Shown here in pieces: positions 18,202 through 42,366 of a stretch of DNA of 64,000 nucleotides (position 1 is its first letter; the number at the start of each line of letters is the position of its first letter). Source of the DNA: Bacteroidales bacterium. GTDB taxonomy: Bacteria; Bacteroidota; Bacteroidia; Bacteroidales; Tenuifilaceae. The notes beneath the pieces were generated by a model. The model ran no database searches, was not told where the DNA came from, and was given only the letters and a program-made list of their open reading frames with translations. Position numbers and translations under genes: made by a program. Location of the stretch: NCBI GenBank assembly GCA_016931855.1, contig JAFGDZ010000003.1:1-64000 (forward strand), read 5' to 3'.

Positions 18202-18318
18202 GGATTTAAACCATGCTTAACATAGATTTGATGGGCAAATTGGCTTGTAGGTGTTCTTTGATTGTGGTGAATGTTTCTGCTTTGGGTGTGCTGTACGTTT
18301 GGCTACTTTTTTAACCAA

Positions 18319-18354
18319 AGGTTACAATTTAGGTTACAATTTAGGTTACAATTT
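18319..18354 (+). repeat. Three exact tandem copies of a 12-mer
   Basis: AGGTTACAATTT occurs three times in a row (18319-18330, 18331-18342, 18343-18354), followed by a run of T. It lies just inside the phage right end, upstream of the first right-end gene. It could be a protein-binding array; no coding role is likely. Confidence 0.9.
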
Positions 18355-18382
18355 TTTTTTAGCGAAGCGCTTTTATCGTTCT

Positions 18383-18390
18383 TATATTTG
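18383..18390 (+). promoter_or_regulatory. -7 box for the right-end phage gene
   Basis: TATATTTG fits TAnnTTTG, 20 bases before ATG 18410. The matching -33 element is weak. Confidence 0.4.
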
Positions 18391-18409
18391 TGAAAACGAT
18401 AAATCTGAT

Positions 18410-18628
18410 ATGCGCAAGCGCGAGTTATTAAAAATAAGAGATAAGAGAATGGTTCAAAAATTCCACGAACTCTACGACATAAAGCGTATGCGGATAGATG
18501 ATGTATTGAAAGAATTGGAGGAAGAATGGTTCTTTTTGGATTCAAATTACATATACAGTCGTATTTTTTATTGCGAAGAGAACAATGCTTATTATCAGGA
18601 ATTGCTTGGCAAAAATGCAAAGTGCTAA
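18410..18628 (+). CDS. Small phage right-end protein of unknown function
   Basis: The product has 72 residues (MRKRELLKIRDKRMVQKFHE...LLGKNAKC). The upstream in-frame extension to 18251 is rejected because it would translate the tandem repeat. The pattern 'KRD.R.V..FH.LYDI.RMR.DDVL..L..E.FFL....I' recalls small conserved proteins of Bacteroidota mobile elements, with no known function. It is charged and helical, with no membrane segment. It is transcribed toward the phage interior, convergent with the tail-terminator candidate. Confidence 0.65.
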   Translation: MRKRELLKIRDKRMVQKFHELYDIKRMRIDDVLKELEEEWFFLDSNYIYSRIFYCEENNAYYQELLGKNAKC

Positions 18629-19963: not shown

Positions 19964-20021
19964 AATTAGCTGTATATTTGTAACTCTGATGAGAGCGACT
20001 ACGGTCAATCTCAACCAAAAG

Positions 20022-20048
20022 AAGGCAGGGCTTAGGCTCTGCCTTTTT
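20022..20048. terminator. Hairpin between the portal-MuF and gpG genes
   Basis: The stem AAGGCAGGGC / GCTCTGCCTT (20022-20031 with 20036-20045) contains one G-T pair. The T-run is better on the plus strand, so on the minus-strand message it may act as an attenuator or processing stem rather than a full stop. Confidence 0.5.
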
Positions 20049-20051
20049 GAT

Positions 20052-22556
20052 TTAACCCAAGTTGTCTATAAACGCCTTAAACTGCCCGTTATTAACCTGA
20101 CCTCTGGTTATTCTTGACACCCTACTGTTGTTAATGACTATCACCTCTTTTATGTTCCTGTTGATATTGTTTAAACCACCAACTAGACGGCGTTTAAGAA
20201 CTGTTTTGTAGTCATCGGTGTTATTACTTATATCAACAATAAGGTAGTTAGCACCCTGTTTGTTTGCGGAGCTAATTGAGTTAATCAAGAAATTTTCAAG
20301 TGTTACAATGTTGCCATCTTTTGTTGTAGGGTTGTATGTTTTTAGATCCCCTTTTCTGTTTTGCGTTCCAATGCCTAATTCGGGGTTCTTGAAACCTTTT
20401 ACATTATTAACGTGAGGCCTTATGTATATATTTGTTTTTAACTCTTTGCAAAGAATCTTGGCGGCTTCAATGTTCTGAACGGTGTCTGCGGTGTCTGAAA
20501 AATCATTTATAAAAACCTTATGGTCATTAACCTTAATGCTTCTACTGTATGGAATGTACACTTTCATCTTTTCAGCATTTGTAAGCATATTTTTGCTTTT
20601 TCTTGCTGAAACAAAGTAACTATGCTCTGGAGTGAATATTTTTCCTGTAAATGCAGGGTTATTTCCCCATTGCTGGCTTACGCCTTTAACATCCCTATCT
20701 AGTGTTGGTGGTTCGTTGGTTTGTTCAAGCCAGCACCTACAACCAGGGTCGAATGGTGGAATTACTTTCCACTGATTTACAGGCTTTATTATTCCTTCAT
20801 TTGCTCTGTGAGAGTCTCTTACATTTTCGTCGCCAAAAGTTCTGAGTTTTAGGTACTGATAAATATCAATATCTTTTATGTACTGCTCAAAGTCACGAGC
20901 AGAACTAGCGGCATTAGCTGCAAACTTTTTCTCCACATCCATCCAGGTCTCGTTGTGTATAGTAACAGTCTGCTTTGCTTTTGCAATAAAGGACTCTTTT
21001 GTTACCTCAGTAGAAGCTAAATCGTTAAGCTTTTCCATCAGGCTAAAGGCTTTTGCGCCTGAGAATTTAAACAAGTTTTCTCTTATGCTTCTTGCTGTTG
21101 TTGATTCGTAATACCCATTACCCCACCCATCGTTAGCTTCTTTATTTAGAGATGCATAGTTCTTAAGTACTAAGTCTTTGTCTAAGTCAGCTGGTTTTAC
21201 TTCGCCGTTGTATATTGCATTGGCTAGCCTTTCGATGGCAGCATCCCAAGTTGCAGCAAATAGCGTGTACTTATCAACATGCAATGCGTTTATGCTAGGC
21301 TTTTTTTTTTGAGCAGTAACATTCATTTCTTCAGGATTCTGCTGCTTTTTACCTATTACAGGTAGGCCTGTTCTCTTTTTAATCTCATCAACATCGAATT
21401 CGTAATAGGCTGATAACTCTTTTACTCCGTTAATGTATTCTTCGATGTTAAGAGTTTCTTGGTTATCCCACACCAGTTGATGAGTTGCAAATGCTGCGTA
21501 CTTACTGCTTAGCTTTGCTAATGAGTGCCTTATTTTGCTGTTAAAGTAGTACTTAAATAATAGTTTGTCGGCTTCATACCTATCTTGCGCTACCCTTTCT
21601 TGTACCTCTGCAGAACCTACGAATGATTTAACATCGGTGGTGGCTGAACCGCCAAGTACGCTTTTGCTTATTTCATTGTTACATATGTCGTTTATGAGAG
21701 CCTTGTAACTTTGGTAGCCATCTACATTGTAGTTTGCAGGTATTGTTATTGTCTCATTACCCTGTAGCACCCCAAAATGATTAGACCTAAAGTTCTCCAG
21801 CATGTCAAACAGCTCATCGCGTCTAGTAGAGTCAAGTCTATCTGTTATTACAAATAGAGGTGGAACTCCATACTTTTCAATGAATGAAATCCATGAACCT
21901 AATGCTAATTTTTTTGCCAGCACAATCATGGCTAGTTGGTTAAGTAGCCCTAGTTCCCAATCTCCTCCAACTTGTACGTAGTAATCTTTGTAGAAGCCTT
22001 CTTTGTAACTTACTCCTGTTTCATCGTACTCTTCCTTTATTATAATGCCTTTTTGCGGAATGTAGTTGCTTTGGGGAATTTCTGTTACTCTAGTTAGTTC
22101 GCCATTCTCATCAACATCAAATAGTTCTATTAGTGTAGTTCCTTGAAAGTTTTTTGATAGAACGAGTTTAACAAGATCGTCGTACCATGGCCTCTCTAGT
22201 AGGCCTTTTAACTCATCGTTTTCTACACCTTTTTCGTTTACTATTTTGAAAGAAGATCGTGTTGTTCTTAGTATTCTGGTGTTAATAACTCCAGAGAGGT
22301 GAGGGTCTAACATCAATGACTGATTAAACCTCATTAACATCCCTCTTCGTGGATTAATGGGGTCGGTTGCTGCTGTCACTGATGTGATCCAATCTCCAAT
22401 AAGCTTACGATTGTAAAACGTTGACTGCCTACTCCATTCAGCTTTTTTTGCTGTTCTGTTGTAGTATTCGTTGAATATGCTGCTGTTTTTAGCCCTGCTA
22501 ACAATGAACGATTCTGCAGCAGTTTTTATCCTATCTATAATGTTTGTTTTGGCCAT
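20052..22556 (-). CDS. Portal (DUF935)-MuF fusion with C-terminal BECR/CdiA-C-like domain
   Basis: The 834-residue protein has three parts. Residues 1 to ~400 resemble the Mu gp29-type portal (DUF935: LIGDWITSV, TSRNIL-like trimming of ...TDRLDSTRRDELFDML). Residues ~420-650 are a MuF/SPP1 gp7-type minor head domain ending in RDSHRANEG...IPPFDPGCRCW (Cys606, Cys608). Residues ~660-834 look like a CdiA C-terminal (BECR-fold) nuclease-type domain: EAAKILCKEL..NIYIRPHV, then KNPELGIGTQNRKGDLKTY, and QGANYLIVDIS...LKRRL. In Mu these first two are separate genes. MuF proteins with C-terminal toxin domains are a known polymorphic-toxin class of temperate phages. No obvious immunity gene follows. 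The start codon abuts a TTTAAAC palindrome. Confidence 0.85.
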   Translation of the reverse strand: MAKTNIIDRIKTAAESFIVSRAKNSSIFNEYYNRTAKKAEWSRQSTFYNRKLIGDWITSVTAATDPINPRRGMLMRFNQSLMLDPHLSGVINTRILRTTRSSFKIVNEKGVENDELKGLLERPWYDDLVKLVLSKNFQGTTLIELFDVDENGELTRVTEIPQSNYIPQKGIIIKEEYDETGVSYKEGFYKDYYVQVGGDWELGLLNQLAMIVLAKKLALGSWISFIEKYGVPPLFVITDRLDSTRRDELFDMLENFRSNHFGVLQGNETITIPANYNVDGYQSYKALINDICNNEISKSVLGGSATTDVKSFVGSAEVQERVAQDRYEADKLLFKYYFNSKIRHSLAKLSSKYAAFATHQLVWDNQETLNIEEYINGVKELSAYYEFDVDEIKKRTGLPVIGKKQQNPEEMNVTAQKKKPSINALHVDKYTLFAATWDAAIERLANAIYNGEVKPADLDKDLVLKNYASLNKEANDGWGNGYYESTTARSIRENLFKFSGAKAFSLMEKLNDLASTEVTKESFIAKAKQTVTIHNETWMDVEKKFAANAASSARDFEQYIKDIDIYQYLKLRTFGDENVRDSHRANEGIIKPVNQWKVIPPFDPGCRCWLEQTNEPPTLDRDVKGVSQQWGNNPAFTGKIFTPEHSYFVSARKSKNMLTNAEKMKVYIPYSRSIKVNDHKVFINDFSDTADTVQNIEAAKILCKELKTNIYIRPHVNNVKGFKNPELGIGTQNRKGDLKTYNPTTKDGNIVTLENFLINSISSANKQGANYLIVDISNNTDDYKTVLKRRLVGGLNNINRNIKEVIVINNSRVSRITRGQVNNGQFKAFIDNLG

Positions 22557-22572
22557 TTAAGTAGTGTTTAAA
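22554..22572 (-). repeat. Dispersed phage palindrome, copy at portal start
   Basis: TTTAAACACTACTTAAATG (minus strand) ends exactly in the portal-MuF start codon. It is identical over 19 bases to the copy at 46389-46407. Confidence 0.75.
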
Positions 22573-23005
22573 CAAAATTATTGTCGTTAGTGCTATTGCC
22601 CCAAAGAGGAGAGACTGGTGAGCCATCGAAGTTTATTAATAATGGGCATCCGATTAAATCCATTGCCCCGGCTTGTATCTTTTCAAGCGTTTTTATTGCT
22701 TCTTTGTACAGCTCAACATAATCGTCGGGAACTTTCCTTGCTGCATTTCTCTTTACGGCTCTATACACTACAATGCTGGATATTAGTTGAACAAGAACCC
22801 CATTCCTTATAGGAGTATCAGAAAAGATTTCAACATGATTATATCTCCTTGAGATGTAAGATATAACTAGGTCGATGGCTTTGGATTCAATGTCGATTAT
22901 AATGTCGTTGTCAGCTAAAGGTATTGCAGTGTCCATGGCAACGCTTTCGTTAATTAATCTCTCATGGATTATTGCAACAATATCATCTTTATTAATGTAT
23001 CTCAT
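22568..23005 (-). CDS. Mu gp36-like phage protein (DUF1320)
   Basis: This 145-residue protein resembles the gp36/DUF1320 family: RYI..DDI....I...L and a central AIDLVISYISRRYNH motif with a VYRAVKRNAARKVPDDYVELYKEA segment. The family is thought to sit at the head-tail connector. It lies between terminase and portal, a different position from Mu where it follows the capsid gene. There are 4 bases between its start and the terminase stop. Confidence 0.75.
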   Translation of the reverse strand: MRYINKDDIVAIIHERLINESVAMDTAIPLADNDIIIDIESKAIDLVISYISRRYNHVEIFSDTPIRNGVLVQLISSIVVYRAVKRNAARKVPDDYVELYKEAIKTLEKIQAGAMDLIGCPLLINFDGSPVSPLWGNSTNDNNFV

Positions 23006-41844: not shown

Positions 41845-42366
41845 TTATTTATTCCAGGTTAAGCCATCAACATCAAATTCAATTATTTTACTTCCCTCGT
41901 TGTAGAATTGTGCTTCAATTTTTAGCTTTTTTGCTGTCTTTAGGTTTTCGATAAATGACTCCGCCTCGTCTATAAAAATCATATCTAGGCTTCCGTCGCT
42001 TGGTGTTTGGTATGTATAGTTTATAGGCTGATTCTCGTCGAATTTGGCTCTTATGGTAACTCCGTTTAGAGCATCGGTTAGAAATTGCCCAGAAGATACC
42101 CTTATTAAAACCTCATTGCCATAGCCCATTTCTCTTAAGGTTAATTTAAAAGAAGAGCCTCCGTTATAAGGGAATTCAAAATCTATTTTATTTATTGATG
42201 TGTTGTTGGCAAAGTGACGAGCAGTTCCATCCATGGGGTCTTTGTCTTCCATGTATGTCCAGTTCTGTTCTGTTTTACCGTTATTGCGTGTTTGTGTGTC
42301 GCATCCATACGCGGCAATTACCGCTACAGCAAACGTTAGTAGTACTAGTTTAAGTGTTTTTTTCAT
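41845..42366 (-). CDS. Phage-carried lipoprotein (accessory gene)
   Basis: The 173-residue lipoprotein has signal MKKTLKLVLLTFAVAVIAAYGC (Cys22). The body has FELTL-like segments: SFKLTLREMGYGNEVLIRVSSGQF, TIRAKFDENQPINYTY, DGSLDMIFIDEAESFIENLKTAKKLKIEAQFYNEGSKIIEFDVDGLTW. The pattern resembles small secreted domains in which a DG..DMIFI..A..FI..L..AKKL.IE sequence recurs, function unknown. The gene is isolated between terminators, pointing to expression from the prophage (moron). Superinfection exclusion or envelope modification is possible. ATG 42366 is preferred over the upstream codon. Confidence 0.72.
   Translation of the reverse strand: MKKTLKLVLLTFAVAVIAAYGCDTQTRNNGKTEQNWTYMEDKDPMDGTARHFANNTSINKIDFEFPYNGGSSFKLTLREMGYGNEVLIRVSSGQFLTDALNGVTIRAKFDENQPINYTYQTPSDGSLDMIFIDEAESFIENLKTAKKLKIEAQFYNEGSKIIEFDVDGLTWNK

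What the first reader, a model, noticed from the sequence alone, without database searches (positions are those of the whole stretch)
20052..22556. Portal, MuF and BECR-nuclease-like domain fused in one phage protein
The reading frame joins a DUF935 portal, a MuF minor head domain (ends at ...CRCW, Cys606/608) and a C-terminal domain of about 175 residues with the pattern of CdiA C-terminal (BECR) nucleases: alternating helices and strands, KNPELGIGTQ followed by D and K, then QGANYLIVDIS. MuF toxins of temperate phages are known, but fusion also to the portal would place up to twelve toxin domains in each capsid vertex. No immunity gene directly follows; the next gene is gpG-like. So either the immunity lies elsewhere (the early-operon unknowns or the lipoprotein at 41845), or the domain has another job, such as ejection with the DNA.
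Basis: partly seen in the sequence, partly recalled or inferred. Interest (0 to 1): 0.7.

Follow-up and report, generated by a model that had tools for sequence, protein, structure and literature searches.

The report
Phage head toxin with RNA antidote
A virus built into a bacterial chromosome carries a nuclease toxin fused to its head-portal protein, and beside the toxin gene, on the other strand, lies what looks like a small RNA gene that may take the place of the usual protein antidote.

Summary
The toxin is not BECR; it belongs to the CdiA_C (PF18451) PD-(D/E)XK family, closest solved structure 4g6v (Z 10.8). MuF toxins with this domain, and portal-MuF-nuclease fusions, are in print. New is what lies behind the gene: a predicted small RNA gene on the opposite strand (window + 19981-20049), with a Bacteroidetes-type promoter box, a hairpin, and a terminator abutting the toxin stop. 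In 71 MuF loci with nuclease-type tails, 61 have this convergent box, against 1 of 32 MuF genes without a toxin and 0 of 7 with metallopeptidase tails. The RNA changes with the tail even where MuF domains are 88-94% identical. Four nuclease-type loci where I saw no RNA have damaged active sites. Metallopeptidase and glutamine-deamidase tails have small proteins in the same slot. PBECR2-linked RNAs form a covarying family, probably with a pseudoknot, and occur in bacterial contigs with no toxin seen nearby. I read this as RNA immunity for phage-borne nuclease toxins: the RNA gene is well supported by comparison, its antitoxin role inferred. No expression was seen.

The parts
20052..22556 (-). 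portal-MuF-toxin fusion gene, 834 aa (stop codon 20052-20054)
21363..22319 (-). Mu-type portal domain, residues 80-398
   Evidence: PF06074 E 1.6e-54
20730..20951 (-). MuF domain, residues 536-609, ending at CRCW
   Evidence: PF04233 E 4.7e-6; phrog_19194 (residues 439-662) E 2.3e-22
20103..20522 (-). CdiA_C-type PD-(D/E)XK nuclease core, residues 679-818; predicted active-site residues E726, D737, K739
   Evidence: model match to 4g6v Z 10.8 over 121 residues; motif columns
19973..19980 (+). TATATTTG, Bacteroidetes-type -7 promoter box (consensus recalled) reading toward the toxin gene
   Evidence: class-wide enrichment
19981..20049 (+). predicted small RNA gene (immunity-RNA candidate), transcript of about 60-69 nt; start site not known
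   Evidence: RNA fold z -5.65
19990..20013 (+). 5' hairpin of the RNA (5 bp, 2x2 internal loop, 3 bp, 4-nt loop)
20019..20048 (+). 3' hairpin and T-run: intrinsic terminator abutting the toxin stop codon
19430..19963 (-). gpG-like / neck gene that follows the toxin gene (start codon chosen by me; the listed frame begins at 20014); its start overlaps the upstream part of the RNA promoter
   Evidence: phrog_26 E 1.3e-8; sequence
22568..23005 (-). gp36-like head-tail adaptor, upstream neighbour
   Evidence: PF07030 E 1.2e-9

Best explanation
The gene is a MuF polymorphic toxin of a Mu-like prophage whose MuF carrier is also fused to the portal. Its last ~155 residues are a PD-(D/E)XK nuclease of the CdiA_C kind, probably a metal-dependent tRNase (inferred from 4g6v), placed at the portal vertex and delivered with the DNA or released on lysis (inferred). 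Lysogens and producing cells are protected not by an immunity protein but by a small structured RNA transcribed from its own promoter on the opposite strand, convergent with the toxin and ending in a terminator at the toxin stop. Tail and RNA form one exchangeable cassette in the 'immunity slot'. Nuclease-type tails (CdiA_C, PBECR2, and LPD3, the last a nuclease by fold resemblance only) have class-specific RNAs; metallopeptidase and glutamine-deamidase tails have class-specific small proteins there. The RNA most likely acts in trans by binding the nuclease as a decoy or pseudo-substrate, as type III antitoxin RNAs do. Supported by comparison: domain identity, the RNA gene's promoter box, structure, class-specificity and swapping. 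Inferred: expression, binding, neutralisation, delivery.
For: Toxin: 10 of 18 family members match PF18451, best E 4.6e-13; family profile hits PDB 4g6v, E 4.6e-6; window found by profiles built without it; model pLDDT 83.7 matches 4g6v at Z 10.8, next row 6.8. RNA: antisense TAnnTTTG box at least 35 nt from the stop in 61 of 71 nuclease-type loci (53 of 63 without the LPD3 group), 0 of 7 metallopeptidase, 1 of 32 short MuF (Fisher 1.6e-16 against short, 7.4e-6 against metallopeptidase, treating loci as independent); background 178 of 1951 windows of the same loci and 21 of 261 other gene ends. RNA fold z mean -4.19 for 68 RNAs, -0.16 for 336 control windows. Swaps: MuF domains 88-94% identical carry a metallopeptidase without RNA (L166, L169), an LPD3-type tail with RNA (L167) or an unassigned tail with RNA (L170). 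The 4 nuclease-class loci where no RNA was recognised (L003, L099, L113, L127) lack an aligned active-site residue or the whole segment that holds it. Slot: a Cys-rich protein lies behind 6 of 6 metallopeptidase tails and behind no other of 132 loci; another small protein is convergent behind 3 of 3 glutamine-deamidase-type tails (both profiles were built mostly from these same proteins), with a convergent ORF of similar start in phage p00. PBECR2 RNAs: 6 of 16 consensus pairs have compensatory changes. RNA-first: the 5 model-confirmed viral hits (2 are seed contigs, 2 carry the same RNA) are all convergent to MuF-PBECR2-type genes; 8 more lie in bacterial contigs without a MuF hit.
Against: No transcript, binding or toxicity data. 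The window domain alone gets no Pfam hit; membership rests on relatives. In the CdiA_C class the 5' hairpin alone is barely more stable than shuffles (mean z -1.22 and -0.46 for the two groups), so much of the signal there is the terminator, and I have no covariation test for the window's own RNA type. The nuclease nature of LPD3 tails rests on fold resemblance at Z under 8. Exceptions: L042 has an altered acid yet shows a hairpin RNA; L097 lacks the aligned acids, and L027 aligns poorly, yet both have the box; L075 and L112 lack the His yet have the box, and L115 lacks it yet has an RNA like that of L112. An ART tail (L135) has neither RNA nor a small ORF. L040/L042/L043 have a hairpin RNA but no TAnnTTTG box. 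'Other' tails: 7 of 16 with box (L068's box precedes a protein ORF), function mostly unassigned. The loci share ancestry, so the Fisher values overstate.
Confidence: 0.65

Rival explanations
1. The RNA is a cis-antisense silencer of the late head operon (like lambda OOP RNA at the 3' end of cII, recalled): it base-pairs with the toxin-gpG messenger and keeps the toxin silent in the lysogen, without binding the protein.
For: Convergent position at the 3' end of the gene, own promoter box and terminator.
Against: A silencer should serve any toxic tail, yet metallopeptidase tails (0 of 7) lack it while MuF genes with near-identical MuF domains but other tails have it. PBECR2 RNAs share sequence and structure between loci and occur where no toxin gene was seen. 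Small proteins fill the same slot for other toxins.
Confidence: 0.17
2. The domain is a structural or spent remnant with no toxic role, and the gap is only a convergent terminator and promoter for phage gene control.
For: Some relatives have broken active sites (L003, L099, L113, L127); phage Mu's own MuF tail is described as an inactive PBECR (PMC5512222, passage).
Against: The window keeps E726, D737 and K739; both acids are kept in 36 of 37 CdiA_C-class loci with the box; the four nuclease-class loci with no RNA recognised are damaged ones; RNA form follows toxin class.
Confidence: 0.08
3. One reading: BECR nuclease with the immunity gene elsewhere (early operon or lipoprotein 41845).
For: No same-strand small protein gene follows.
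Against: Fold and family are PD-(D/E)XK CdiA_C; the slot next to the toxin is occupied by the predicted RNA; no Pfam family for the lipoprotein.
Confidence: 0.04
4. The nuclease is injected to help infection (cleaving host RNA or countering host defence) rather than to kill competitors; the RNA only protects the producing cell.
For: MuF effectors are discussed as delivered into the host at infection (PMC5512222, passages). PBECR2-type RNAs without MuF lie beside HsdR-like and Cas9-like genes in some Muricauda contigs (genes named by my reading of the frames).
Against: Not tested; compatible with RNA immunity.
Confidence: 0.3

Closest known systems
MuF polymorphic toxins of temperate phages (PMC5576092, passages seen)
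   Same: MuF carrier in the packaging module, variable C-terminal toxins; cd13442, the domain of the Bp1026b CdiA tRNase, is named among them
   Different: There immunity is taken to be a small downstream ORF (89.4% of 191 toxin genes are followed by one); here the slot holds a predicted convergent RNA gene, and the carrier includes the portal
CdiA-CT Bp1026b / PF18451 CdiA_C, PDB 4g6v (PMC9086364, passages seen)
   Same: PD-(D/E)XK fold and the NP(D/E)...(D/E) acids
   Different: CDI delivery and a protein immunity (CdiI); the Bp1026b active-site lysine K242 lies on a helix by my alignment, while here a D-x-K is kept
Portal-MuF-PBECR fusions (PMC5512222, passages seen)
   Same: Portal, MuF and nuclease in one protein
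   Different: Nuclease of another fold; 'noncoding RNA' and 'small RNA' do not occur in the text
Bxa MuF ADP-ribosyltransferase of Bacteroides (PMC11699363, passages seen)
   Same: MuF toxin of a Bacteroides prophage, shown toxic, with adjacent immunity; relatives with glutamine deaminase or alarmone synthetase tails are followed by small ORFs
   Different: Two immunity proteins; 'RNA' and 'antisense' do not occur in the text
Type III toxin-antitoxin (ToxIN and kin; recalled) and phage-encoded AbiF with RNA-based regulation (PMC12373285, listing with start of abstract only)
   Same: Toxin held by a structured RNA; probable pseudoknot in the PBECR2 class
   Different: Single, not tandem-repeat, RNA; opposite strand with its own promoter box and terminator; toxin is part of a head protein; several unlike RNA forms follow several nuclease classes

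Membership tests
CdiA_C (PF18451) PD-(D/E)XK tRNase | sequence match to the family | tested here: met
   Window alone: no hit. By relatives: 10 of 18 members match, best 4.6e-13; profiles without the window match it at 1.3e-29 and 2.6e-20
CdiA_C (PF18451) PD-(D/E)XK tRNase | fold like 4g6v | tested here: met
   Z 10.8, 121 residues, rmsd 3.1, next row 6.8; Foldseek alone gave no E under 0.001
CdiA_C (PF18451) PD-(D/E)XK tRNase | active-site acids and lysine | tested here: met
   E726, D737, K739 in the conserved columns
CdiA_C (PF18451) PD-(D/E)XK tRNase | tRNA cleavage | not testable with these tools
   needs bench work
MuF polymorphic toxin | MuF domain in the packaging module, variable toxin tail | tested here: met
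MuF polymorphic toxin | small immunity ORF immediately downstream | tested here: not met
   No small same-strand protein gene in the 88-base gap (only a 28-codon TTG frame); an RNA gene is predicted there. A common, not strictly defining, feature (89.4% in PMC5576092)
BECR nucleases | match to BECR families or fold | tested here: inconclusive
   No PBECR hit for the window at E 1 while PBECR2 tails of relatives do hit; the strong profile and structure match is to a PD-(D/E)XK enzyme
Type III toxin-antitoxin | structured RNA antitoxin next to an RNase toxin | tested here: inconclusive
   RNA gene and structure predicted; binding and neutralisation untested
Type III toxin-antitoxin | tandem-repeat antitoxin RNA upstream of the toxin in the same operon (recalled) | tested here: not met
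   single RNA, opposite strand, own promoter box, downstream of the toxin

The most novel reading that the evidence does not exclude
Mu-like phages of Bacteroidota protect themselves from their own virion-borne ribonuclease toxins with small structured RNAs: a toxin-specific RNA immunity gene that swaps together with the toxin tail, is lost when the nuclease decays, is replaced by a small protein when the tail is a protease or deamidase, and is also kept alone in bacterial chromosomes, perhaps as resistance to such phages.
Probability: 0.55. Interest if true: 0.92.

Novelty: new variant of a known kind. Interest (0 to 1): 0.8.

Why it matters
Polymorphic-toxin immunity is taken to be a protein. 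If nuclease-tailed MuF toxins use RNA instead, a class of immunity genes has been missed because annotation looks for ORFs. It would link polymorphic toxins with RNA antitoxins, give several RNA inhibitors of defined nuclease folds, and make the open question of what MuF toxins do testable: removing the RNA should expose the toxin. RNAs found in bacterial contigs without the toxin could be a new form of protection against phage-delivered effectors.

Tried and rejected
BECR fold for the window tail: rejected as the better reading. Single-protein scan of viral contigs with the whole window protein found no relative. Foldseek alone against the PDB gave no E under 0.001 and unrelated top rows; the 4g6v match comes from VIA-align and the sequence profile. 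Rfam: only four matches, all below their gathering scores, for the RNA region and for ten other loci. My first iterative tail classification drifted through the shared linker and was discarded; one search uses the last 130 residues. I took the CdiA_C and LPD3 RNA alignments (A6, A7) no further because they are too diverged; so covariation is tested for the PBECR2 RNAs only. The model R1 finds little else: in 295 genomes of the window's order 2 hits, one of them a seed, and in 59 genomes related to G702 only that seed. The LPD3-class RNA loop GGAUUGUAGUUCC resembles a tRNA anticodon loop (GUA); left as speculation. LPD3 tails look BECR-like by fold: the top eight rows, Z 4.7-5.6, are BrnT, CDI, colicin D, MqsR or RelE chains, but Z is under 8 and an unrelated protein follows at 4.5. 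Chance hits set aside: short-MuF loci L143, L144, L149 (box 16 nt from the stop) and L116 (24 nt), excluded by a 35-nt rule made, leaving L134; without the rule the count is 5 of 32. Pattern hits L270, L271, L321 lie inside a MuF gene, 82 nt before its end, and L179 likewise. Rows dropped before counts: 169 loci with a MuF frame, 161 closed, 132 with distinct tails, 7 with too little downstream sequence, leaving 125. Viral-contig relatives: 80 best of 116 kept. Genome pattern hits: 80 of 83 stretches were returned as loci and scored.

No print found for an RNA partner of MuF or polymorphic toxins in the searches (open-licence PMC library only; listings looked at, most papers not opened).

Full report
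WHAT IS THERE. The frame at 20052-22556 lies on the minus strand and encodes 834 aa. Portal_Mu covers residues 80-398 and MuF 536-609. Neighbours are a terminase-like gene (weak Pfam match, E 0.008) and a gp36-like adaptor upstream, and a gpG-like gene downstream; the next gene (phrog_6911, unknown function) has the place of the gene called tail completion in phage Peternella_1. The prophage also has a GemA-like protein, an rve-type transposase and a CI/S24 repressor. The genome holds one copy of the fusion.

THE TOXIN DOMAIN. Relatives of the C-terminal 222 residues were found in a fecal phage contig (MT835523, E 2e-16) and in Winogradskyella phage Peternella_1 (E 0.01), and by profile in 12 of 395 genomes of the phylum, the window's own included. 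Ten of 18 aligned members match PF18451 CdiA_C; the window itself does not. A profile of the family finds PDB 4g6v, CdiA-CT of Burkholderia pseudomallei 1026b, at E 4.6e-6. Profiles that leave the window out find it at E 1.3e-29 and, without its four closest relatives, 2.6e-20, against 0.14 for the best of 2000 shuffles. A model from 16 sequences (pLDDT 83.7) aligns to 4g6v at Z 10.8 over 121 residues, above the next row at 6.8; Foldseek alone had not listed it among its top rows. The CDI review places Bp1026b in the PD-(D/E)XK superfamily, with E187, D214, D223, K242, and as a Mg-dependent tRNase (PMC9086364, passages). By the alignment the window's E726 and D737 take the places of D214 and D223, and K739 supplies a D-x-K. 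So the domain is best read as a PD-(D/E)XK nuclease, not BECR.

KNOWN SIDE. [quoted passage not shown] In my set 27 of 132 MuF frames contain the portal domain, five of them with CdiA_C-class tails (L001, the window itself, L002, L080, L097, L099). Tails are polymorphic in related phages: CdiA_C, PBECR2, LPD3, metallopeptidase-like (HE..H frames by eye, local profile; Pfam only weakly), glutamine deamidase and ADP-ribosyltransferase. This alone would make the finding a new member of a known kind.

THE GAP BEHIND THE GENE. No small protein gene follows the toxin. On the plus strand the gap reads: TATATTTG (19973-19980), a 5' hairpin (19990-20013), a strong hairpin with T-run (20019-20048), then the toxin stop (fold z -5.65). 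TAnnTTTG with an upstream TTG or TTTG is the Bacteroidetes promoter consensus (recalled). Over 67 loci an upstream TTG is most frequent 21-25 nt before the box, apart from one directly next to it. In a first set 20 of 27 loci had the box antisense within 150 nt of the MuF stop, 3.8 expected, 0 sense.

TEST ON A LARGER SET. MuF-domain searches of 393 genomes of the order (62 with a match) and 295 of the class (15) and of viral contigs, with the earlier loci, gave 132 MuF frames with distinct tails, 125 usable. Without a distance rule the box is antisense in 68 of 93 long-tail and 5 of 32 short-tail loci. With the box at least 35 nt from the stop: CdiA_C 29 of 31, second CdiA_C group 8 of 11, PBECR2 16 of 21, LPD3-like 8 of 8, metallopeptidase 0 of 6 (0 of 7 with L126), other 7 of 16 (L126 among them), short MuF without toxin 1 of 32. 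Nuclease-type classes together 61 of 71, or 53 of 63 without LPD3; Fisher 1.6e-16 against short, 7.4e-6 against metallopeptidase; it holds within viral contigs (32 of 36 against 1 of 30) and within genomes and phages (29 of 35 against 0 of 9). Loci share ancestry, so these values overstate. In the same loci the background is 178 of 1951 windows and 21 of 261 other gene ends. The 68 predicted RNAs fold far better than shuffles (mean z -4.19) while 336 control windows do not (-0.16); the first 36 nt alone are weak (CdiA_C mean -1.22). 54 of 68 end in a T-run terminator by my rule.

THE RNA GOES WITH THE TAIL, NOT WITH THE PHAGE. L166 and L169 (metallopeptidase, no RNA), L167 (LPD3-like, RNA) and L170 (unassigned tail, RNA) share MuF domains 88-94% identical; L027 (CdiA_C by profile, RNA) and L054 (acetyltransferase-like by my reading, no Pfam hit, box outside the limit) 79.5%. 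RNA size differs by class: box-to-stop distance 36-99 nt for CdiA_C and 65-138 for PBECR2.

WHERE THE RNA IS MISSING. Of the 10 nuclease-type loci without the box, L004 and L064 carry the PBECR2-type RNA farther away (both were model seeds), L115 an RNA like that of L112 (by eye), and L040/L042/L043 share a hairpin RNA with a T-run but no such box (by eye). In the other four, L003, L099, L113 and L127, I saw none. L003 and L099 have lost at least one aligned catalytic acid, L113 lacks the segment with the PBECR2 histidine, and L127 lacks that histidine. Both CdiA_C acids are kept in 36 of 37 loci with the box; the PBECR2 histidine in 14 of 16. Exceptions are L097, L027 (poor alignment), L042, L075, L112 and L115.

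THE SLOT IS AN IMMUNITY SLOT. Behind metallopeptidase tails a small Cys-rich protein lies in the slot in 6 of 6 loci, convergent in four and co-directional in two, and behind no other of the 132 loci; five of the six made the profile, but they also match each other pairwise. Another small protein is convergent behind 3 of 3 glutamine-deamidase-type tails (L068, L133, L154; Pfam checked for L133; profile built from them), and phage p00, whose MuF tail matches the same Pfam family (E 4.5e-10), has a convergent ORF with a similar start (21 residues, E 0.009). L054 has a convergent 58-aa ORF. An ADP-ribosyltransferase tail (L135) has neither. That the slot serves immunity is inference; for the ART toxin Bxa adjacent immunity proteins are shown (PMC11699363, passages).

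RNA FAMILY WITH COVARIATION. Eight PBECR2-linked RNAs align around a core near CACCUYRCGGGUGAUGGGG; 6 of 16 consensus pairs show compensatory change. The loop pentamer and a 3'-tail pentamer pair 5 of 5 in 15 of 17 sequences, with changes such as CGGGU/ACCCG, CGGAU/AUCCG, GGGAU/AUCCC and GGGGU/ACCCC. Because the set is similar, swapped partners also pair fairly well (mean 4.1 of 5; all five in 19 of 56), so this supports but does not prove the pseudoknot. An outer stem of 7-14 bp with unlike sequences can be drawn in 15 of 17, 4-6 bp in L182 and L183 (no shuffle control). The model built on the eight found only those eight among 133 loci below E 0.4. Searching by RNA core alone (8 viral and 83 genome stretches) and scoring 88 of these 91 plus L175 with the model gave 13 matches under E 1e-5. 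L175 itself came from a model search of 295 genomes of the order. Five are viral, all convergent to a MuF gene with a PBECR2-type end; two are the seeds' contigs and two carry the same RNA, so two are independent. Eight are in bacterial contigs (Muricauda/Allomuricauda, a Flavobacteriaceae MAG, and L175; L203 and L213 identical) with no MuF hit in the stretch held and no convincing PBECR2 gene nearby (best E 0.023 in a tiny search). L175 ends 56 bases after the RNA, so a toxin there cannot be excluded.

MECHANISM. I propose RNA immunity acting on the nuclease protein (65%). Against pure cis-antisense silencing: the RNA goes with nuclease-type tails, its sequence is shared within the PBECR2 class, and copies occur where no toxin was seen. 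Expression, binding and neutralisation are untested. Type III antitoxin RNAs are the nearest functional analogue (recalled; PMC12373285 seen in listing only), but position, strand and single-copy form differ.

Noticed in passing
L166, L169, L066, L069 (antisense) and L005, L033 (sense), just behind the MuF stop: Cys-rich 56-78 aa proteins found with all six metallopeptidase MuF tails of the set and with no other of 132 loci: candidate immunity proteins, in either orientation.
   Followed up: partly
L332 (phage p00) 5188-5487 -: This phage's MuF has a glutamine-deamidase tail (PF15644 E 4.5e-10) and a convergent 99-aa ORF in the immunity slot.
   Followed up: partly
L195, L203, L213, L224, L231, L250, L259: PBECR2-type RNAs with no MuF hit in Flavobacteriaceae contigs, some beside HsdR-like (L203, L213, L224) or Cas9-like (L195) genes by my reading.
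   Followed up: partly
LPD3-class RNAs L034, L086, L137, L165, L167: Hairpin with a loop close to GGAUUGUAGUUCC that resembles a tRNA anticodon loop with GUA; a possible substrate mimic.
   Followed up: no
L040, L042, L043 behind the MuF stop: A different antisense hairpin RNA with a T-run and no TAnnTTTG box behind CdiA_C tails of a more distant group.
   Followed up: no
L039, just upstream of its RNA box: A perfect inverted repeat GGGTGTACGCGTACACCC lies in the promoter region, perhaps an operator.
   Followed up: no
window 18251-18628 +: Small gene with a homologue (55% identity over residues 54-118) at the matching place of MT835523, behind the tail-completion-place gene on the opposite strand; no Pfam hit.
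   Followed up: no
L039, L044: CdiA_C modules in short frames (166 and 145 aa; L044 keeps a MuF-like fragment by eye), still followed by the antisense box and hairpins.
   Followed up: no
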